A stretch of 64,000 nt of DNA from Bifidobacterium choladohabitans (lineage in GTDB: Bacteria; Actinomycetota; Actinomycetes; Actinomycetales; Bifidobacteriaceae): the NCBI RefSeq assembly GCF_016102005.1, contig NZ_JACFPL010000001.1, forward strand, positions 372,001 to 436,000. The letters run 5' to 3'. The notes under the pieces were generated by a model. It was not told the origin of the DNA, searched no databases, and saw only the letters and a list, made by a program, of their open reading frames with translations. The translations under genes and the position numbers were made by a program. How positions within the stretch are numbered: the first letter of the stretch is position 1; each line of letters starts with the position of its first letter. Shown here one piece after another: positions 3,583-52,484 of this stretch.

Positions 3583-4233
3583 CTAGAGCGGGAAGGCCTT
3601 GTAGAAGGCCTCCAGCGCAGTCCGCTGGCCCTGGGCACGGAAGACCACGGTATCATTCTGCCAAATGACCAGCACCTTGTGCTCGTCGTCGCCATCCGCC
3701 TTCTCCAGGTAGGATCCGGTGACCGTGCCGCCGCTGCGAACATTGCCCGCGGCCAGCTCCTTGCCGGACATGCCCGTGGACTGGCTGTCATAGAGCGCCT
3801 TGGCATCCTCGCTCCTGGACCACTGAGCCAGGTGAAGGGTCACATCCCCGCCCGACCTGCCGGTGGAATAGACCAGGTTGTACTCCTCGATGGGCGTACG
3901 GGTGCTCCACTCGCTGTCAGAATCCGCTTTGACACGGGCGAACTCTCCCACCGTATCGGGCATGGCCTTGAGCAGCTCGGAAGCCGAATCAGGCAGGGGC
4001 ACCGCCGTGGCCTTGGGGCTGCTGGCTTGCGAGGGTTGTGAGGATGCGGAGGCCGAGGCCTGGGCGACGGGTTCTGGGCTGCGCACCGCCCAATGAGGCC
4101 AGACAAAAGCCGATAGGAGCACCAGGACCACCACCGCCGCCAGGGCGATGACCAGACCGATCCGTCGACGGCGTTGCCTGGCGTGCGCGGAGGAGTCGGA
4201 GGAGGACACGGGTGCAGAAGGATTGTCAGCCAT
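3583..4233 (-). CDS. Membrane-anchored extracytoplasmic protein, unknown function
   Basis: A 216-residue protein with a short Ser-rich N-terminus, an RQRRRR stop-transfer charge cluster (about 19-24) and one hydrophobic segment (about 25-44), so type II insertion with the C-terminus outside is likely. A Ser/Ala/Pro-rich linker (about 53-75) leads to a folded domain (about 80-216) with repeated aromatic and beta-prone stretches. I do not recognise the domain. It is divergent from radA, whose start lies 90 bases away, and the two may share a control region. No lipobox or catalytic motif is visible. Confidence 0.75.
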   Translation of the reverse strand: MADNPSAPVSSSDSSAHARQRRRRIGLVIALAAVVVLVLLSAFVWPHWAVRSPEPVAQASASASSQPSQASSPKATAVPLPDSASELLKAMPDTVGEFARVKADSDSEWSTRTPIEEYNLVYSTGRSGGDVTLHLAQWSRSEDAKALYDSQSTGMSGKELAAGNVRSGGTVTGSYLEKADGDDEHKVLVIWQNDTVVFRAQGQRTALEAFYKAFPL

Positions 4234-4323
4234 GCCTCCATTCTCTCATGGGCAGGGTGTCGGCACTGCGAAGATGCCGTAAAAGCCCGGTTCCTCGTCC
4301 CTGAATCCCGATAGCGTGCAGGT

Positions 4324-5733
4324 ATGGCCAAGACGACGACGCAATACGTGTGCACGGAGTGCGGGTGGACCGGCGGCAAGTGGTTCGGACGCTGCCCGGA
4401 ATGCGGCCAGTGGGGAACCATCGAGGAATTCCACGAAGCCCGTGTCGTAGGTGCAGGCGGGGGTCTGTCCTCCTCCGGCGGCAGCCATACGGCACCTGCA
4501 CCCCCGAAGAGCGGCCTGGCTCGGCCCATCACACGGGTGGGCACGGACCAGGTAAAGCGCATTCCCACAGGATTCGAGGAATTCGACCGGGTCCTGGGCG
4601 GGGGCATCGTACCCGGGTCGGTCATCCTCTTGGCCGGCGAGCCGGGCATAGGCAAGTCCACCCTCCTGCTGGAGACCGCCGGCCGCGTGGCCGACCGGGG
4701 TGGTGAAAAAGGCAAGGTGCTCTACCTGTCGGGCGAGGAGTCCCAGGCCCAGGTGCGGATGCGGGCCAGTCGGGTGGGAGCGCTCAAGGATTCGCTGTTG
4801 CTGGCTTCGACGACCGACCTGGCCACGGTGCTCGGGCTGATCGAGCGCGAAAAGCCGGCACTGGCCATTGTGGACTCCGCCCAGACCATCGTCTCCAGCC
4901 AGGTCGACGGCATCTCCGGGGGTTCCACCCAGGTACGCGAGGTGGCCATCAGCCTGATAGATATGGCCAAATCGCACGACATCCCCATCCTCCTGGTCGG
5001 CCACGTGACCAAGGACGGCTCCATCGCCGGGCCCCGGACCCTGGAGCATCTGGTCGATGTGGTCTGCCAGTTCGAGGGCGACTCCCAGACCGCACTGCGC
5101 CTGCTGAGAGCCGTCAAAAACCGTTTCGGCCCCACCGACGAGGTGGGATGCTTCGACATGGGCGAGCAGGGCATCGAGGAGGTCAGCGACCCCACGGGGC
5201 TCTTCCTGTCCACAACCGGACAGGAGGTGGAGGGTACCTGCGTGACCTTCACCTTGGACGGCCACCGCAGCCTGCCCATCGAGATCCAGGCCCTGGTCAC
5301 TTCATCTGTTCTGCCCACGCCCAGACGCAACACCAACGGAATCGATGCCAACCGTCTGGCCATGCTGGCCGCGGTGCTCTACCGTCACGGCCGCGTCAAC
5401 CTGCTGACACGGGACCTGTATGTGTCCACCATCGCCGGCGGACTGGCCAAGGAACCCGGATGTGACCTGGCCATCGTGGCCGCGCTGGCCAGTGCAGCCA
5501 AGTCCCGGCCCATCCTGCGCACGACCTGTGCCATGGGCGAGATTTCGCTGACCGGGCAGGTCAGGCCTGTGCCTCAGCTCAACCACCGGCTGCAGGAGGC
5601 CGCCCGTCTGGGATTCACCCGGGCGCTGGTCCCGCCCGACCGGCATTCAGGAGGCCGAAAACCCATCCAGGGACTGGAGGTGGTCGAAGTCACCTATCTG
5701 GCCGAGGCCCTGGAGGCTCTGGGACTGGTCTGA
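4324..5733 (+). CDS. radA: DNA repair protein RadA/Sms
   Basis: A RecA-like ATPase that promotes branch migration and processing of recombination intermediates. The 469 residues show the full RadA layout: a C4 zinc finger (Cys10, Cys13, Cys24, Cys27), Walker A GEPGIGKST at 105-113, the RadA-specific KNRFG motif at 265-269, and a C-terminal Lon-protease-like domain (about 285-469) that acts as a scaffold and lacks protease activity in this family. The start ATG has only a modest ribosome-binding site. It stands alone, with the amino acid transporter operon following after 125 bases. Confidence 0.96.
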   Translation: MAKTTTQYVCTECGWTGGKWFGRCPECGQWGTIEEFHEARVVGAGGGLSSSGGSHTAPAPPKSGLARPITRVGTDQVKRIPTGFEEFDRVLGGGIVPGSVILLAGEPGIGKSTLLLETAGRVADRGGEKGKVLYLSGEESQAQVRMRASRVGALKDSLLLASTTDLATVLGLIEREKPALAIVDSAQTIVSSQVDGISGGSTQVREVAISLIDMAKSHDIPILLVGHVTKDGSIAGPRTLEHLVDVVCQFEGDSQTALRLLRAVKNRFGPTDEVGCFDMGEQGIEEVSDPTGLFLSTTGQEVEGTCVTFTLDGHRSLPIEIQALVTSSVLPTPRRNTNGIDANRLAMLAAVLYRHGRVNLLTRDLYVSTIAGGLAKEPGCDLAIVAALASAAKSRPILRTTCAMGEISLTGQVRPVPQLNHRLQEAARLGFTRALVPPDRHSGGRKPIQGLEVVEVTYLAEALEALGLV

Positions 5734-16854: not shown

Positions 16855-16862
16855 AATGAGGG

Positions 16863-16948
16863 CGGTTGAGGCGAGATTCGAACTCGCGGAGGGAGTTGCC
16901 CTCACACGCTTTCGAGGCGTGCTCCTTAGACCGCTCGGACACTCAACC
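16863..16948 (-). tRNA. tRNA-Ser, anticodon CGA
   Basis: The minus strand folds into a class II tRNA: acceptor GGTTGAG/CTCAACC with discriminator G, anticodon loop CCTCGAAAG giving CGA (reads UCG), a long variable arm, and a T-loop with GTTCGAATC. The three bases after the discriminator are CCC, so the CCA end is not encoded and must be added enzymatically. Confidence 0.93.
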
Positions 16949-17056
16949 ATGGTCGTTGCCCGACACTGCCGAACAACAACTTTTCTATTATGCCACAGAG
17001 TCCCTACCTGGCAAGCGGCGTGGCGCAGTCAACCGTCACCGCGAACGACCCTGATG

Positions 17057-23663: not shown

Positions 23664-23690
23664 GATAGGACTCAGCCCATCCGGACAGAA

Positions 23691-23730
23691 GGGGCCCGAC
23701 CTGCAGAAATTGCGGGTCGGACCCCTTATT
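23691..23730 (+). terminator. Terminator of gdhA
   Basis: GGGGCCCGACC (23691-23701) pairs with GGGTCGGACCCC with one mismatch around a short loop and is followed by TTATT. It begins 27 bases after the gdhA stop and also lies just past the stop of the opposing GH2 gene. Confidence 0.75.
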
Positions 23731-23752: not shown

Positions 23753-26431
23753 TCAGGCGACCAGCTGGTCGATGACCCCGGGATCGATCCGCTGGCGCGG
23801 GTTGAAGTCCTTGGAGCCCAGATACCGGTAGATGCTGGCCTGTAGGGCCCTGGCCTCAGGATATTCGGACAGATTCTGCAGGCCCATGGAGGAGAGCAGA
23901 AGCCGACCCCTGCCGCAACGGCATTCCAGCAGCTGCGTCATGGGTCGCAGGTAGGCGTAGCTGTCCATCTCGGTGATGATGGACTGATAGCGCTCGGGCA
24001 GGATGATGGCCCGCTGGGTGGCCATGGGCCACCACTGCCAGTCAGTGTGCGAGTCGGTCGGAAAATCTGCGAAAACAGGGTGGTCGGCCTGAATGAACTG
24101 CCCCATGGTGCCGCTCTGTTCCTTGAACGTTCCCACCGACCAGAAGTCCGTGGAGAAATGGGCCTGAACGGATCTGGGCAGGGACTGGGGTGTGGAGTCG
24201 GGACTCAGATAGACCGTGCCCCCCTGATCCAGGACCCGACGCGCCTGACGGTCGAACCTCCTGGCTTCGTACAGACCGTCTGGACGATCAGACTGGCTGT
24301 CCTGGTAGACCCAGACCGAATAGACGTTGGCCACGCCGTCGATCTCCAGACTCAGACGGCAGCGTTGGTTGCCTTCAACTCCGTCCAGAGGCAATTCGAA
24401 GGCTCCCAGATCGGTCAGCTTGCCCACCGGACAGGTGACCTTGCGGAAGACATGTTCCAGATCAACCCCCGGGCCCTGCAACCGCAGCCGCAGATCACCC
24501 CGAAGGGTGCGTCGGCCGTAGTTGGCCACCTTGACCGTCCCTGAAAGCTTCTCCCGGTTGGTATAGGCGTAACGGTCCATGACTGCCAGCGGCAACTGAT
24601 CGGTGAAGAAGGACCGGAAACGTTCAGGACGGGCGAAGGGAAAGCGCTTGGGGTGCAGATGGGCATCCATCATGCCCACCAGAGCCGTGCCTTGTCCGGG
24701 AAAGTCCTGAAGACCCAGCAGCGAAAGCCCAGACATGGAAGGGGTTCGCAGGACGGACTCCACCTCCTCCCGGTAGCAGATTCGTGACAGTTCGCCTGTA
24801 GCGGCCACCCAATCCAGCCAGGTACGCTGGTCTAGGCCCGATTCACGAACCCTGTCACGAATCATTGCGTAATTGTCGGGACGGGTGACCCCGGTGAACT
24901 CCTCGATCTCCCGGAAGTCCGGCAGCACCTCATACTGGCCGACCTCGAATCCATAGACCGGAACCGTGCACTCTTTGCGGACTGCCTGCATGGAGTCCTC
25001 GAAATTGTGGGCAGTGCCCGGATGCACCGCATTGGTGGACCCACGCATGTCGGCGAAGCAGCAGCGCAGGTCATGGTCCTTGTAGGACTCTGAGGTGTAG
25101 ACCTCGTTGCAGTCGTCACTGCCCAGCTGACCATAGTGCGGGTTGGAGGAGTTGGCATAGAGCCGGGTGTCGTCGATGCCCCGGGCATCCTCGATCAGCT
25201 GAGCCATGCGCTGGTGACCGGTCGCATCCGCAGACAGCTCGTTGCCCAGGGTGAGCATGACAAAGGAGGGGTGGTTGGCCAGGAAGAGCAGTGTCTGCTC
25301 CAGTTCGGTGCGATAGTAGCGGTAACTGACATCCTCCTGGAAGGCATGTTGGTGGTCCCAATGGGAGAGCTCGGGCTGCATCATCATCCCCATCCGATCC
25401 GCCGCGATGAAGGCCGCCTCGGGCGGGCAGTGCGAATGGAAGCGGACCACATTCACTCCGTATGACCGGTAGGCCTCCAGAATACGAATCCAGGAGCCCA
25501 CGTCCATGGGCGGGAAGCCGGTCTGCGGAAACTCAGCGCAATTGGCCTCGCCACGCAAGAAGAAGGCCCTGCCGTTCAGCGCCAGTCTCCCCCGCTCATC
25601 GGCGGCGAAGTCACGGATGCCGAAGTCCGTGCTGACCCGCGAGAGCACCCTGGATCCGTCCGGTGTCAGGAGCTCGATTGTCATGCCATGCAGACAGCCC
25701 TGGTATTCGTCCCAGCGATCCGCCCGGGCATCAAGCTGCAGATCGGACCAGGTCAGTGTTCGCCGCCCGGGTTCCAGGTCCGCAGCGACCTCCAGAGGCT
25801 GGGCCAGCGCATCGGAAGAGAGCCTCAGGCGACCGTGGAATCCTTGTCCCGAATCCACATCGGCCTCTATGGTCAGCGCATCACCATGGGGGTAGGCACG
25901 AACCCTGTCCAGGAAGGTATCCTCCTCCACACGCAGGCCAATCTCTCCCAGAAGCCCGTTCCAGTTGGTCTGGGTGTGGTCGGTGGCGGTCGAGGAATCC
26001 AGAATGGCGTCGTGGGGCATGCCCTGATAGGCGTTGTCGGAATCCACCTGCAGCAGGTCATCGCCCGTCAGCAGCCCGGTCAGCTCGAAGACATGCGGCG
26101 TGTTCAAGGTCTGGGGGCGATAGGGCTCAACCAGACGTTCGCCCACCCTGACCTCCAGGCGGCGAGCGCGCTCCACCTCGAAGAAGATCCTCCGCCCCGG
26201 CTGCGGGGTCCATCGAATCTGCCGGGACAGCCTGACAGTCCCCTCGAAGGTGTGCCGCCTGGTCAGCCGAGAGCCGATGGGGCCGGGCTTGCCACTGCCA
26301 TAGTCAGCAGACAGCTCCTGATCATCATGTCCGAGTCCGTTGGTGTCCAACGTGCCTGGCAGCAGGACGGTTCCCTGCAGTTCAGGCGGGGACTCAACAC
26401 GCCAAGCACCGGTCAATGCCACCTTGGTCAT
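23753..26431 (-). CDS. Glycoside hydrolase family 2 enzyme, substrate unknown
   Basis: An 892-residue retaining glycosidase of the beta-galactosidase/beta-glucuronidase clan. An N-terminal jelly-roll domain (about 1-165) and an Ig-like domain (about 170-265) precede a TIM barrel. The barrel has VNVVRFHSHCPP in place of the common VRTSHYP motif, the acid/base Glu398 in LTLGNELS, and a probable nucleophile Glu496 in VYGFEVGQYE, about 100 residues apart as usual. The C-terminal 300 residues include beta domains. No signal peptide, so it acts inside the cell. Its start overlaps the stop of the DUF5107 gene by four bases (ATGA). Close GH2 activities include beta-glucuronidase, galactosidase, mannosidase and arabinopyranosidase; I cannot choose. 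Confidence 0.85.
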   Translation of the reverse strand: MTKVALTGAWRVESPPELQGTVLLPGTLDTNGLGHDDQELSADYGSGKPGPIGSRLTRRHTFEGTVRLSRQIRWTPQPGRRIFFEVERARRLEVRVGERLVEPYRPQTLNTPHVFELTGLLTGDDLLQVDSDNAYQGMPHDAILDSSTATDHTQTNWNGLLGEIGLRVEEDTFLDRVRAYPHGDALTIEADVDSGQGFHGRLRLSSDALAQPLEVAADLEPGRRTLTWSDLQLDARADRWDEYQGCLHGMTIELLTPDGSRVLSRVSTDFGIRDFAADERGRLALNGRAFFLRGEANCAEFPQTGFPPMDVGSWIRILEAYRSYGVNVVRFHSHCPPEAAFIAADRMGMMMQPELSHWDHQHAFQEDVSYRYYRTELEQTLLFLANHPSFVMLTLGNELSADATGHQRMAQLIEDARGIDDTRLYANSSNPHYGQLGSDDCNEVYTSESYKDHDLRCCFADMRGSTNAVHPGTAHNFEDSMQAVRKECTVPVYGFEVGQYEVLPDFREIEEFTGVTRPDNYAMIRDRVRESGLDQRTWLDWVAATGELSRICYREEVESVLRTPSMSGLSLLGLQDFPGQGTALVGMMDAHLHPKRFPFARPERFRSFFTDQLPLAVMDRYAYTNREKLSGTVKVANYGRRTLRGDLRLRLQGPGVDLEHVFRKVTCPVGKLTDLGAFELPLDGVEGNQRCRLSLEIDGVANVYSVWVYQDSQSDRPDGLYEARRFDRQARRVLDQGGTVYLSPDSTPQSLPRSVQAHFSTDFWSVGTFKEQSGTMGQFIQADHPVFADFPTDSHTDWQWWPMATQRAIILPERYQSIITEMDSYAYLRPMTQLLECRCGRGRLLLSSMGLQNLSEYPEARALQASIYRYLGSKDFNPRQRIDPGVIDQLVA

Positions 26432-29400
26432 GCCTTCCTCCCGGTAAGAATTGCCCTGTGGTCCAATTCATCAGTGAACAACCCGGCTTGAATATGGCCG
26501 GCATCCAGTTCCAGCACCTGCTTCAGGCACTCCCGCGCCTGATCGATCTGCCCTGTACCGATGCGTGCCAGGCCCATCAGGTAGAGGCAGTGGACCCGGT
26601 TCATGCGGGTATAGTCCGCATCGAAGGTCAGGAAATCGGGCAGGGAGACTGCGAAATAGTCCTTTTCCACATGGTCGTCCAAGTGCTGCTCGCCGAAGTC
26701 CAGCAGCCGGTAATAGCAGGCGTTGGCCGGACCCTGCTCGCCCAGGGCCTGGTGGGCCAGCCCCTGGAAGAGGACCATCTCGGCGGGCTGATCATTGTAA
26801 TAGAGCGACTCCCCCACCTGCCCCGAGCCCAGGCAGGCCAGACGGAACTCCTGATCCGCAGCTTCCTGGTCACCTGCTGATCGTCTGACCAGCCCAAGGT
26901 AGTAGTGCAGATCGTTGTCCTTCTGACCTTCCAGTTTGCCTTCGCCCAGGTTCTCCGGATAGGTCATGGCTCGCTCCAGCAGGTCCGCAGCACGATCCCA
27001 ATCCCGGACCGCCATGGCGTCCTTGGCCATCAGCGTCAGGGATATTCGGTATTGGGCGGTGATCTTGCCCTCACCACCCTCCCATGGGTGGAAGTGCCGA
27101 CCACTCATCAGCCGATAGGCCCGTTCGTAGCTGCCGGTCTGGTTGAGCAGACTCAGGTATTCGATATAGAGATCGTCCCTGCGGGCCACAACCGATGGAT
27201 GCTTTTCAAATTCCGTCAGCCGACGGGCAAAGCTCCAGCCCATCAGCCTATGGAGCTGATCCCGCTCCAAAAAGACCCGGGCGTCTTCGGGATCCAACCG
27301 GCAGGCGGTCTCGATTTCCTGATCGGCGGCCTGCCAATCGTGTCTTTTGTTGCCATAGGCGATGGCCAGGTTGCGGTGGACGGTGGCGAAGTCGGGGTCC
27401 AGTTGCCGGGAGTGCTCCCAGAGCTTGATGGCCCGGTCAGTCAGAGACTTGTCGTAGTAGAGGCAGCCCAGATAATAGGCTGCCTTGGGACCGTCGACCA
27501 GGGTCATGGCCGTGCGCAGGGGGGCGATATCATCCAGGGAATTGGGGAAGCAGTAGTCCGAAGGCGCGGCCTCAGCGGCTTGGAAGGCCTGAAGGGCCTG
27601 ATCCTTCCGACCCAGCAGGTGCAGATACCAGCCTTGATAATACCGGACCATGGGCTGCTGCTGATCGGCCTGGCCCAGCAGCTGCAGCGCCTCCTCATAG
27701 GCGCCGAATGCCGCATAGTCTCGTGCCGTCCGCAGCAGGTTGAGGTAATCCCCGCGCATCAGGCTGGACAGCTCGTCCGGATCACCGCCTGCCAAGACCC
27801 GCTCGTAGCCGGATACGAAGTCGAACCGATCCAGGGCAAGATTCTCGCGGACCACTTGGTCCGCCTGATCCTTCCTGCCCAGCCGACGCAGCAGATAGGC
27901 CTTGAGCCCACGAGCCCTGATGTTGTCGGTGTTGCGGGTCAGGGCACGCTGGACGAAGTCCAGAGCCTGCTCCAGCTGGCCGCGACATGCCGTGATGCAG
28001 GCCAGACAGAAGAAGGCCCGTTCCTTTTGCGCATCATCCCAGGTAGCCTTGTAGAAGGCGTCGTAGGCCTGGTCCATTCGTCCCTGATAGCTCAAGGCGA
28101 GGCCCAGATTGTAATGGGCCTCGGAATCATAGGGTTGGCTGTTACGCCAGGTCAACCGCTTGATGGCCGTGCGGAAGTGCCGCTCGGCTCCGGCGAAGTC
28201 GCCGCGTCGAAGCAGGAGTCGGCCGTAGGCGTTGTTGATGCGGGCATCGCCCGGGTCACGCTTGAGCCCCTCCAGGTAGTAGGGATCAGGCCGGTAGGTG
28301 GCGTGGCGGTACTGTTCCAGGTGCAGACCGGTCAGCAGCAGTTCCTCGTTGGTGGCGATACGTTCCGGCCGATCGGCGGCCTGTGCCGGCTCGGGAATCC
28401 TTCCGCCGGCGGGCGGCTGTGGACGATAGCTGACCAGGAGCCGTCCTTGAGCGTCCTCCACCCGGGCTGTCAGCGCAGTGGCCGGACGATCACCTGTCTC
28501 GAATTCGGCCCTGACCTGATTGTCGGGGCCTAGGGTGCCCTGCCACTGGTAGAGGATAGATCCGTCATCTGCAGCGACTTGGACACGCGCATCCTTTTGA
28601 ACCCGTGTGGCGTAGACGGTGACTCGCCCCTGCCCGGCCTTCAGCCCCTGGGCCTCGATCCCCTCATGCTCTCCGGCAGCTCCGAAGGTCTGCTCGGGGC
28701 CGACCTCCAGGTTCAGGGCCGCATCCACGCTGGCGTTCTTGACCAGCCCCACCTGCTTGTAGGGCATGAAGTACTGGGTGAAGGTCTTGCCCTCGTAGGG
28801 CTTGAGCCAGGTGAAGTCCGGCTGGTTGTCGGTGAAGACCCCGGTCATCAGCTCCACGTAGGGGCCGTCGGCATCGGTCAGATTGCGATCCCAGGCGTGG
28901 CCGAAGTCCCCGCAGCCCCAGGTCCACTGCTTCTTGCCCGGGGAGATGTGATGGTCAGCCACATGCAGAATGCCCGCCTGCCGGGAGAAATCGTAGCCGC
29001 CGACGAAGTCATAGTCCGAATGGGCAGCCATATAGGAGGTGGGCACCGGCACGTTCTTGTAGCGGCTGATATCCACTCCCTGGGAATAGTCGTGCTTGTA
29101 GTAGGTCCCCGTGGCGATGGGATAGCGGGAGACGTCGCGCTTGCCATGGTCCATGACCGCAGTGACATCTGGCGGCATGACGGTCCTGGTGTGCTCGTTG
29201 ACCGCCACGGCCGGGTTGGCCCACCAGAGGAAGGACTGCGGCAAAGGCGTGCCGTTGTAGAGCCGGGCCGAGATTTCGATGACGCTGAGCCCGGGATGCA
29301 GGGCGATGGTCGTGGTGACCTGGGTGCCGTATATGCGGTCGGTATCATGGCAGACCACCGCCTTGCCACCGTCCGGTAGGTCCTTGAGCGTGCAGTCCAC

Positions 29401-29793
29401 CGGGAGGAAGGTGCTGGGCCGGTGGTGCTGCGGCCAGTTGAACTCGATGCCGCCGGAAATCCAAGGGCCGGTCAGGCCCACCAGGGCAGGTTTGATGACC
29501 CGGTTGCGGTAGACGAAGTCATAGTCGTTGGTCTTGTCCCGGGCATACTGGATGCGTCCGCCCAGCTCAGGCAGGACGGTCACCTCCAGGTATTCGTTCT
29601 CCAGAATGACCGCCTTGTAGTCCTGATCCTTGCATTCATCCGAGATGGTCTCGATGACCGGGTAGGGATAGACCCGACCCGAAGAACCCTGGTAGACTCG
29701 ATTTTCAATAAATTGCGGATTCTTGTCCGGTTTTCCGATTCCGTAGGTTGGAATCGTCAGCTCTGTGACTTTCACTGTGACGCCCATGGTCAT
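26428..29793 (-). CDS. DUF5107 domain protein with C-terminal TPR array
   Basis: A 1121-residue protein of unknown biochemical role. The N-terminal 400 residues look like DUF5107, a beta-sandwich of the galactose-mutarotase-like type, with ENEYLEVTVLPELGGRI, GPWISGGIEFNWPQHHRP and FLWWANPA; aldose epimerases carry similar ELGGR turns. Residues about 400-480 form a beta linker. From about 500 to 1110 there are many helical repeats of TPR type (for example NNAYGRLLLRRGDFAGAERHF and AHYNLGLALSYQGRMDQAYDAF). No signal peptide or membrane segment. A second ATG at 29787 is also possible. The tight overlap with the GH2 gene suggests one functional unit, perhaps a sugar-binding or glycosidase scaffold. 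Confidence 0.8.
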   Translation of the reverse strand: MTMGVTVKVTELTIPTYGIGKPDKNPQFIENRVYQGSSGRVYPYPVIETISDECKDQDYKAVILENEYLEVTVLPELGGRIQYARDKTNDYDFVYRNRVIKPALVGLTGPWISGGIEFNWPQHHRPSTFLPVDCTLKDLPDGGKAVVCHDTDRIYGTQVTTTIALHPGLSVIEISARLYNGTPLPQSFLWWANPAVAVNEHTRTVMPPDVTAVMDHGKRDVSRYPIATGTYYKHDYSQGVDISRYKNVPVPTSYMAAHSDYDFVGGYDFSRQAGILHVADHHISPGKKQWTWGCGDFGHAWDRNLTDADGPYVELMTGVFTDNQPDFTWLKPYEGKTFTQYFMPYKQVGLVKNASVDAALNLEVGPEQTFGAAGEHEGIEAQGLKAGQGRVTVYATRVQKDARVQVAADDGSILYQWQGTLGPDNQVRAEFETGDRPATALTARVEDAQGRLLVSYRPQPPAGGRIPEPAQAADRPERIATNEELLLTGLHLEQYRHATYRPDPYYLEGLKRDPGDARINNAYGRLLLRRGDFAGAERHFRTAIKRLTWRNSQPYDSEAHYNLGLALSYQGRMDQAYDAFYKATWDDAQKERAFFCLACITACRGQLEQALDFVQRALTRNTDNIRARGLKAYLLRRLGRKDQADQVVRENLALDRFDFVSGYERVLAGGDPDELSSLMRGDYLNLLRTARDYAAFGAYEEALQLLGQADQQQPMVRYYQGWYLHLLGRKDQALQAFQAAEAAPSDYCFPNSLDDIAPLRTAMTLVDGPKAAYYLGCLYYDKSLTDRAIKLWEHSRQLDPDFATVHRNLAIAYGNKRHDWQAADQEIETACRLDPEDARVFLERDQLHRLMGWSFARRLTEFEKHPSVVARRDDLYIEYLSLLNQTGSYERAYRLMSGRHFHPWEGGEGKITAQYRISLTLMAKDAMAVRDWDRAADLLERAMTYPENLGEGKLEGQKDNDLHYYLGLVRRSAGDQEAADQEFRLACLGSGQVGESLYYNDQPAEMVLFQGLAHQALGEQGPANACYYRLLDFGEQHLDDHVEKDYFAVSLPDFLTFDADYTRMNRVHCLYLMGLARIGTGQIDQARECLKQVLELDAGHIQAGLFTDELDHRAILTGRKA

Positions 29794-29970: not shown

Positions 29971-30006
29971 GAAAGGGGGTCGGCCCATCAAGGACCGACC
30001 CCCTAG
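29971..30006 (-). terminator. Terminator of the ABC exporter operon
   Basis: AGGGGGTCGG pairs perfectly with CCGACCCCCT around an 11-base loop; on the minus strand TTT follows the stem. It lies 70 bases past the stop of the downstream exporter gene. The remainder of the 285-base gap to the DUF5107 gene is AT-rich around 29815-29895 and probably holds that gene's promoter. Confidence 0.7.
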
Positions 30007-52394: not shown

Positions 52395-52484
52395 TGGCGG
52401 AGACGAGGAGATTCGAACTCCTGGACCGCTTGCGCAGTCAACACCTTAGCAGGGTGCCCCTTTCGGCCACTCAGGCACGTCTCC
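52395..52484 (-). tRNA. tRNA-Ser, anticodon GCT
   Basis: The minus strand folds into a class II tRNA: acceptor GGAGACG/CGTCTCC, anticodon loop CCTGCTAAG giving GCT (reads AGC and AGU), a long variable arm and GTTCGAATC in the T-loop. The 3' CCA is encoded, unlike in the other serine tRNA of this window. Confidence 0.95.

What the first reader, a model, noticed from the sequence alone, without database searches (positions are those of the whole stretch)
23753..29793. Translationally coupled GH2 glycosidase and DUF5107-TPR protein: possible undescribed glycan-processing unit
The two genes overlap by ATGA, together span 6 kb and lack signal peptides, so they act in the cytosol. The GH2 member keeps both catalytic glutamates (Glu398, Glu496) but has FHSHCPP where SHYP is common, which may alter the substrate pocket. 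The partner joins a mutarotase-like sandwich to about 600 residues of helical repeats, a layout suited to binding a sugar and a protein partner. No transporter or regulator accompanies them. To my knowledge no function is established for this pair.
Basis: partly seen in the sequence, partly recalled or inferred. Interest (0 to 1): 0.7.

Follow-up and report, generated by a model that had tools for sequence, protein, structure and literature searches.

The report
Galactosidase paired with orphan YphG protein
Two coupled genes in a bifidobacterium encode a probable galactose-releasing enzyme and a close relative of YphG, an E. coli protein whose job is unknown; neighbouring genes of its relatives hint that it acts on galactose-like sugars, which can now be tested.

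Summary
The GH2 protein belongs with PDB 8U01 and exo-beta-1,4-galactosidase BT4151 (CAZy GH2_20 region). FHSHCPP is a trait of that group (8U01: FHSWCPP), not an oddity. The partner is a full-length relative of E. coli YphG (41% identity over 1114 residues), for which my searches showed no functional paper. Its N-terminal domain has the galactose-mutarotase fold. Its most conserved residues lie in that domain's loops, plus TPR glutamates E905 and E908, so I read it as one enzyme rather than sugar binder plus scaffold. YphG relatives usually sit beside an AraC gene, and often beside galactosidase genes or sugar transporters; a second group keeps E. coli's yphC-yphG link. In 397 genomes of one Clostridia family, 13 of 15 with a close GH2 also carry YphG (51 of 397 overall). 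The link is one-sided: 62 of 80 YphG loci show no such GH2 nearby, and one relative keeps an intact GH2 beside a wrecked YphG gene. Galacto genes other than the GH2 were not significantly enriched in the unselected sample (8 of 52 vs 1 of 36, p=0.08). YphG's reaction is inferred, not shown.

The parts
23753..26431 (-). GH2 protein (892 aa), probable exo-beta-galactosidase of the 8U01/BT4151 group (GH2_20 region); N397-E398 acid/base and E496 nucleophile
26428..29793 (-). DUF5107-TPR protein (1121 aa), full-length relative of E. coli YphG
28690..29793 (-). DUF5107 mutarotase-fold domain (residues 1-368) with E65, D86, E117, H123, H124, D209, H216, H281, H282, K287, K288, E314, E334 invariant in 63 of 63 aligned sequences
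26428..28350 (-). TPR superhelix (residues about 482-1121); inter-repeat loops WEGGEGK, YPENLGEGKLEG, YYNDQP, DYFAVSLPD conserved in close relatives; E905 and E908 kept also in distant ones
26428..26431 (-). ATGA stop/start overlap of the two genes
23689..23728. inverted repeat between the ends of gdhA and the GH2 gene, a possible shared terminator (read by eye; not in the terminator scan)
29974..30004. inverted repeat (13 nt arms, 92%) between the ABC genes and the pair, possible terminator (not in the terminator scan)

Best explanation
The two genes form a self-contained cytosolic unit for using small galacto-configured glycosides (beta-galactosides or the like) that enter the cell. Step 1 (inferred from family): the GH2 protein releases terminal beta-D-galactose, or a stereochemically similar sugar such as L-arabinopyranose, by the retaining two-glutamate mechanism. 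Step 2 (inferred): the YphG-type protein is a second, separately acting sugar enzyme. Its pocket lies in the DUF5107 mutarotase-fold domain and is completed by loops of the TPR superhelix (E905, E908). I think it most likely cleaves or opens a glycoside of the same sugar type (hydrolase, phosphorylase or lyase) rather than merely binding it. Shown here: gene structure, families, fold, conserved residues, gene neighbourhoods and co-occurrence. Not shown: any activity, substrate or complex.
For: GH2: match to NF049890 exo-beta-1,4-galactosidase BT4151 over residues 78-891 (492 bits, next model 50) and to 8U01 over 107-884 (E 8e-113, next 3e-8). Passages of PMC12243196 place 8U01 in GH2_20, reported as beta-galactosidase. 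YphG context: 44 of 80 loci have GH35, GH2, GH53, GH36-type, GalK, GalE or GalT genes within 5 kb, 29 of 80 without counting the GH2. In a draw not chosen by neighbourhood: 15 of 52 YphG loci vs 1 of 36 control stretches (p=0.0016). Two loci (L060, L091) read AraC | YphG-c15-GalK-GalE-GalT. The solute-binding proteins of three loci (L053, L068, L088) resemble AraF best of seven E. coli ones (E about 1e-24). A GH36-type neighbour scores 499 bits as beta-L-arabinopyranosidase (cut-off 1100). Enzyme not scaffold: 97% or more of 56 sequences, with paralogues down to 32% identity, keep the same acidic, His and Lys residues, E905 and E908 included. Not simply a mutarotase: an aldose epimerase gene lies 18-132 nt from YphG in 5 of 80 loci (L046, L047, L048, L049, L074) and one is in the E. 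coli operon.
Against: Without the GH2, the galacto link in the unselected draw is not significant: 8 of 52 vs 1 of 36 (p=0.076), or vs 1 of 24 clostridial controls (p=0.26); GalK, GalE and GalT were found in 0 of 52, and 37 of 52 loci showed none of the tested galacto genes. The GH2 scores far below the NF049890 cut-off of 1500, so it is not a BT4151 equivalog and may have another specificity. No genome of this genus group has GH53 (0 of 27), so galactan itself is unlikely as food here, and all 27 have GH42 hits, so other beta-galactosidase candidates exist. A second YphG group sits with YphC-type dehydrogenases, so a galactose link need not hold for the whole family. The conserved loops are among the places where the models are least certain, so a shared pocket is inference.
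Confidence: 0.37

Rival explanations
1. YphG is an unusual mutarotase or sugar isomerase: the DUF5107 domain keeps the general chemistry of its fold and turns over the sugar released by the glycosidase; the TPRs make it oligomeric.
For: Fold search of the domain: after 5cd6 the next hits are mutarotase-type proteins, E 1e-8 to 1e-11, among them 3nre, E. coli b2544 = YphB; weaker hits include GH36 and GH38 enzymes and YidC. E314 is invariant in 63 of 63; its place before a QPD...LKP stretch resembles the catalytic Glu region of GalM (recalled, not aligned here). The Leloir-type loci L053, L060 and L091 show no aldose epimerase gene in the stretch held.
Against: No Aldose_epim match by Pfam at E<=0.001 and no profile match (hhalign probability 0.3%, with only 4 epimerases). 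A real aldose epimerase gene is next to YphG in 5 of 80 loci and in the E. coli operon; three of the five loci are close relatives.
Confidence: 0.23
2. YphG is a non-catalytic sugar sensor or scaffold that binds the GH2 enzyme through its TPRs.
For: TPRs are commonly protein-binding (general knowledge); the genes overlap here; co-occurrence is strong.
Against: 62 of 80 YphG loci show no such GH2 within 5 kb and E. coli's yph operon has none. G011 keeps a stop-free GH2 (dN/dS 0.12-0.15 in its eight pairs; 0.09-0.14 in the other 28) beside a YphG gene cut to fragments. Conserved residues look catalytic.
Confidence: 0.13
3. YphG works with an oxidation pathway: as in E. coli yph, a zinc dehydrogenase (YphC) oxidises a glycoside or sugar and YphG processes the oxidised form; the galactosidase neighbours only feed it.
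For: YphC hits lie near YphG in 12 of 52 drawn loci vs 0 of 36 controls (p=0.0012; vs 0 of 24 clostridial controls p=0.014); 47-52% identity to E. coli YphC in these. E. coli's ycj operon has a D-guloside 3-dehydrogenase, YcjQ (annotation).
Against: YphC and YcjQ are only 28% identical over 181 residues. I saw no YphC gene among the genes annotated at the window locus.
Confidence: 0.15

Closest known systems
E. coli K-12 YphG (b2549), DUF5107 domain-containing protein
   Same: 41% identity, 57% positives over 1114 residues, same domain order, main motifs kept
   Different: E. coli copy lies with yphB, yphC, an RbsABC-type transporter and a NagC-like regulator, no GH2
BDI_1685 of Parabacteroides distasonis (PDB 5cd6)
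   Same: DUF5107 domain plus TPRs; best fold match
   Different: 580 aa, so shorter TPR part; WPQHHRP reads FPISHSP there (alignment); no function given in the entry title
GH2_20 / PDB 8U01 / exo-beta-1,4-galactosidase BT4151
   Same: near full-length match, CPP motif, GNE and E-xGQ motifs, LLGLxDFPGQG
   Different: score well under the BT4151 equivalog cut-off; no signal peptide by eye; gene overlaps a YphG gene
Galactose mutarotase GalM and YphB
   Same: fold of the N-terminal domain
   Different: no sequence-profile match; 600 extra TPR residues

Membership tests
CAZy GH2 | GH2 TIM-barrel domain | tested here: met
   PF02836 22.1 bits, cut-off 21
CAZy GH2 | two catalytic glutamates (NE acid/base, nucleophile) | tested here: met
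   N397-E398 and E496 invariant in 16 of 16; roles assigned from family knowledge
GH2_20 subfamily | closest to 8U01 among solved structures | tested here: met
   E 8e-113, next 3e-8; 8U01 in GH2_20 per PMC12243196 passage
GH2_20 subfamily | formal CAZy subfamily assignment | not testable with these tools
   no CAZy subfamily models at hand
BT4151 exo-beta-1,4-galactosidase equivalog (NF049890) | score above curated cut-off 1500 | tested here: not met
   492 bits
BT4151 exo-beta-1,4-galactosidase equivalog (NF049890) | beta-1,4-galactosidase activity | not testable with these tools
   needs assay
DUF5107 / YphG family | PF17128 domain | tested here: met
   182.6 bits, cut-off 24.4
DUF5107 / YphG family | full-length collinearity with YphG incl. 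TPR loops | tested here: met
Aldose 1-epimerase family | galactose-mutarotase fold | tested here: met
   Foldseek E down to 7.5e-11
Aldose 1-epimerase family | sequence or profile relation to PF01263 | tested here: not met
   no hit at E<=0.001; hhalign 0.3% against 4 epimerases
Aldose 1-epimerase family | mutarotase activity | not testable with these tools
   needs assay
Conserved GH2-YphG gene pair | genes near each other in most carriers of the GH2 | tested here: inconclusive
   7 of 8 genomes with a GH2 of 50% or more, among 39 searched that were chosen for having YphG; in the unselected draw 6 of 15 with a close GH2 have both on one contig within 4 kb, 7 have them on different contigs of drafts, 2 show no YphG
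Conserved GH2-YphG gene pair | genes near each other in most carriers of YphG | tested here: not met
   18 of 80 loci

The most novel reading that the evidence does not exclude
YphG proteins are the first members of a new class of carbohydrate-active enzyme in which a mutarotase-fold domain carries the catalytic groups and a TPR superhelix, instead of the usual (alpha/alpha) barrel, closes the active site; E. coli K-12 has carried one unrecognised, and bifidobacteria and Clostridia use it with galactosidases for galacto-configured glycosides.
Probability: 0.28. Interest if true: 0.78.

Novelty: new variant of a known kind. Interest (0 to 1): 0.5.

Why it matters
A 1100-residue protein that is about 55% identical between bifidobacteria and Clostridia, and present in E. 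coli K-12, has no activity that my searches could find. The neighbourhoods give it a candidate sugar type (galactose/arabinopyranose-like), partners (GH2_20, GH35, GH53, AraC, YphC) and candidate catalytic residues, so an E. coli orphan operon becomes directly testable. If its TPRs do shape an active site, that would be an unusual enzyme architecture.

Tried and rejected
A pocket-altering FHSHCPP motif: rejected, it is shared by the group. Pectic galactan as the local food: GH53 is absent in 27 of 27 genomes of the genus group, though GH53 occurs beside YphG in 9 of 80 loci. One shared sugar transporter for all YphG operons: not supported; three group A and five group B binding proteins match YphF at 22-25% only, group A best AraF, group B no clear best (groups A and B were not compared with each other). 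YphC as a YcjQ orthologue: not supported, 28% over 181 residues. Viral relatives: 17 stretches matched a pattern, none was confirmed. VIA-align library: not available. Profile match to aldose epimerases: none. A bee-gut paper on plant-toxin metabolism (PMC9897726, passages only) names GH3 and other enzymes; the words GH2 and tetratricopeptide do not occur in its main text.

Limits of the counts. The reference proteins used to score neighbourhoods came from YphG loci themselves (and E. coli yph), which favours finding them there. The 36 control stretches (20 kb each) are 24 from Clostridia and 12 from Bifidobacterium genomes, while the 52 YphG stretches (3-20 kb) are all from the drawn family, so p values are given against both 36 and 24. 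Of the galacto genes in the draw, the GH2 itself is found in 10 of the 15 positive loci, some at only 26-30% identity; two of the others are GH36-type hits at 22-23%. Of the 80 loci, 49 have more than 6 kb on both sides, so absences in the rest are weak. Alignment A1 used the window plus 60 of 80 loci: near-duplicates, seven loci whose match crossed a stop, and L103 were left out. A2 used the window plus 15 of the 18 loci with the GH2. One search covered 39 of 40 loci given, out of 80. The 15 'close' GH2 genomes are those at 39% identity or more over a long stretch; G410, with a short fragment (83 residues, 54%) and no YphG match, was left out (13 of 16 if counted). The rough gene caller missed 12 of 80 loci; later counts used tblastn.
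Full report
WHAT IS THERE. The window holds, on the minus strand, an 1121-residue ORF (29793-26428) followed by an 892-residue ORF (26431-23753) that overlap by ATGA. Inverted repeats lie beyond both ends (29974-30004; 23689-23728 by eye), though the terminator scan lists neither; the two genes look like one transcription unit. The flanking genes that I annotated are glutamate dehydrogenase on one side and two MsbA-like ABC half-transporters, adenylate kinase and SecY on the other. Relatives of the partner at 96-98% identity are in B. mellis, B. asteroides, B. polysaccharolyticum and Bifidobacterium sp. 7101 (bee-gut species by recall), so the window is, by inference, from that group.

THE GH2 PROTEIN. 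Pfam sees only a weak GH2 barrel (22.1 bits, cut-off 21). NCBIfam gives a match over residues 78-891 to the exo-beta-1,4-galactosidase BT4151 model at 492 bits, about ten times any other model but below its curated cut-off of 1500. PDB 8U01 matches over 107-884 (E 8e-113). Passages of PMC12243196 (not the whole paper) say that 8U01 is in subfamily GH2_20, that this subfamily shows beta-galactosidase activity, and that its pocket lacks the usual closing aromatics.

THE PARTNER. The PF17128 search rang in one of 14 control genomes, E. coli. The K-12 protein is YphG, and the window protein aligns to it end to end at 41% identity. The library held one paper with the word DUF5107 and 12 with yphG; from the listings none reports a function. 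A search on the other yph gene names gave four papers, none on this operon by title. The model of the full protein (mean pLDDT 80) shows a beta domain, a small second beta domain and helices to near the end. The model of the first 368 residues (pLDDT 73) matches 5cd6 first and then mutarotase-type proteins. Two more distant DUF5107 proteins of other Actinobacteria that I checked also have weak TPR matches in their later half.

CONSERVED RESIDUES. Of 56 sequences, including paralogues at 32-37% identity and YphG itself, 97% or more keep E65, D86, K87, K101, E117, N119, H123, H124, R125, D209, H216, H281, H282, K287, K288, E314, E334 and, in the TPR part, H491, R807, E843, E905 and E908. In segments 97-128, 277-307 and 310-332 the commonest residue averages 0.89-0.94, in the TPR body 0.55. 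E905 and E908 sit in one of four long loops between late TPR helices. The other three loops are kept in YphG and close relatives but not in the distant paralogues. That pattern suggests an active site to which the TPRs contribute. The models are weakest in several of these loops and I had no coordinates, so this is inference.

NEIGHBOURHOODS. Of 80 loci from genome contigs: AraC in 54, divergent and within 600 nt in 44; GH35 in 25, the GH2 in 18, GH53 in 9, aldose epimerase in 8, galactose kinase, epimerase and uridylyltransferase genes in 3, 4 and 4. At least one of the galacto genes lies within 5 kb in 44 of 80 (39 of 75 without the window's clade), in 29 of 80 when the GH2 is not counted. 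These loci were picked by similarity to the query. So I also took 52 YphG stretches from a draw of 397 genomes of one Clostridia family, plus 36 control stretches: galacto genes in 15 of 52 vs 1 of 36 (p=0.0016; vs 1 of 24 clostridial controls p=0.015), AraC 39 of 52 vs 3 of 36 (p=2e-10; 3 of 24, p=3e-7), YphC 12 of 52 vs 0 of 36 (p=0.001; 0 of 24, p=0.014). Most of the galacto signal there is the GH2 itself (10 of 52); without it the count is 8 of 52 vs 1 of 36 (p=0.076) or 1 of 24 (p=0.26), GH53 is 1 of 52 and GalK, GalE, GalT 0 of 52. So the AraC, GH2 and YphC links hold in the unselected sample, and the wider galactose link rests on the selected set. Two types emerge. Group A has galactosidases, or an ABC transporter whose binding protein (three tested) resembles AraF best. 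Group B (12 loci) has YphC (47-52% identical to E. coli's); by clustering, 7 of 12 have a protein that by eye is a ROK-type regulator (E. coli YphH gave no hit at 1e-20), 7 a sugar-binding protein, 6 an SDR and 4 an RbsA-type ATPase in the genes examined.

HOW TIGHT IS THE PAIR. In the genus group, 8 of 27 genomes carry both intact genes side by side (one of them, G018, also a second YphG); 4 carry only a 63-65% YphG relative; G011 has an intact GH2 beside YphG fragments; G009 has only a GH2 fragment. In the 397-genome draw, 15 have a close GH2 and 13 of these also have YphG, against 51 of 397 overall (Fisher p=5e-11). For any GH2 match at E<=1e-20 it is 22 of 47 (p=4e-10). Six of the 13 have both on one contig, all within 4 kb; the other seven have them on different contigs of draft assemblies. 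In 39 genomes behind 40 YphG loci, 10 have any GH2 match; 8 have one at 50% or more, 7 of them at the YphG locus. The GH2 may lie up- or downstream, 0 nt to 3.6 kb away. So the GH2 goes with YphG, but YphG does not need the GH2.

MECHANISM. I commit to a two-enzyme unit for small galacto-configured glycosides: the GH2 frees the terminal sugar, and YphG acts on a related glycoside or on the product with its own active site. A pure scaffold is unlikely given G011 and the many YphG loci without GH2. A plain mutarotase is possible from the fold but is weakened by aldose epimerase genes next to YphG in 5 of 80 loci (L046, L047, L048, L049, L074) and in the E. coli operon. An oxidative route through YphC may apply to group B. 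None of these steps has been assayed.

NOVELTY. The GH2 is an ordinary member of a known subfamily. The YphG family is catalogued (DUF5107) but, as far as the searches named above show, uncharacterised; the GH2_20 link, the conserved yphC-yphG link across phyla and the candidate residues did not appear in the listings and passages I saw.

Noticed in passing
G011, locus L008 about 4171-4900: A relative keeps the GH2 gene intact while the YphG gene beside it is reduced to fragments by large deletions and frameshifts.
   Followed up: yes
L182, L188, L219, L221, L224, L226, L227, L228, L229, L231, L232, L233: Clostridial YphG loci carry a YphC relative (47-52% to E. coli) and, in part of them, a ROK-like regulator, an SDR and RbsABC-type genes, recalling the E. 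coli yph operon; 9 of the 12 also have a roughly 357-residue protein that looks by eye like an M24 peptidase relative.
   Followed up: partly
L053, L060, L064, L066, L068, L087, L091, L103: A roughly 137-residue protein (PF04115 hit, 41.7 bits in L060) follows YphG by 21-45 nt; in L060 and L091 it precedes a GalK-like gene; the GalK-like protein tested (L053) scores below galactokinase cut-offs.
   Followed up: partly
L046, L047, L048: Three Bifidobacterium loci with a 65% YphG relative have it next to aldose epimerase, MFS sugar porter, AraC and SDR genes instead of the GH2.
   Followed up: partly
L042 20463-23336: A second, 32%-identical DUF5107-TPR paralogue lies in the same locus as a YphG orthologue, cut by the end of the stretch.
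   Followed up: partly
window 16860-16949 and 52395-52484: Two tRNA-Ser genes (cga, gct) on the minus strand.
   Followed up: no
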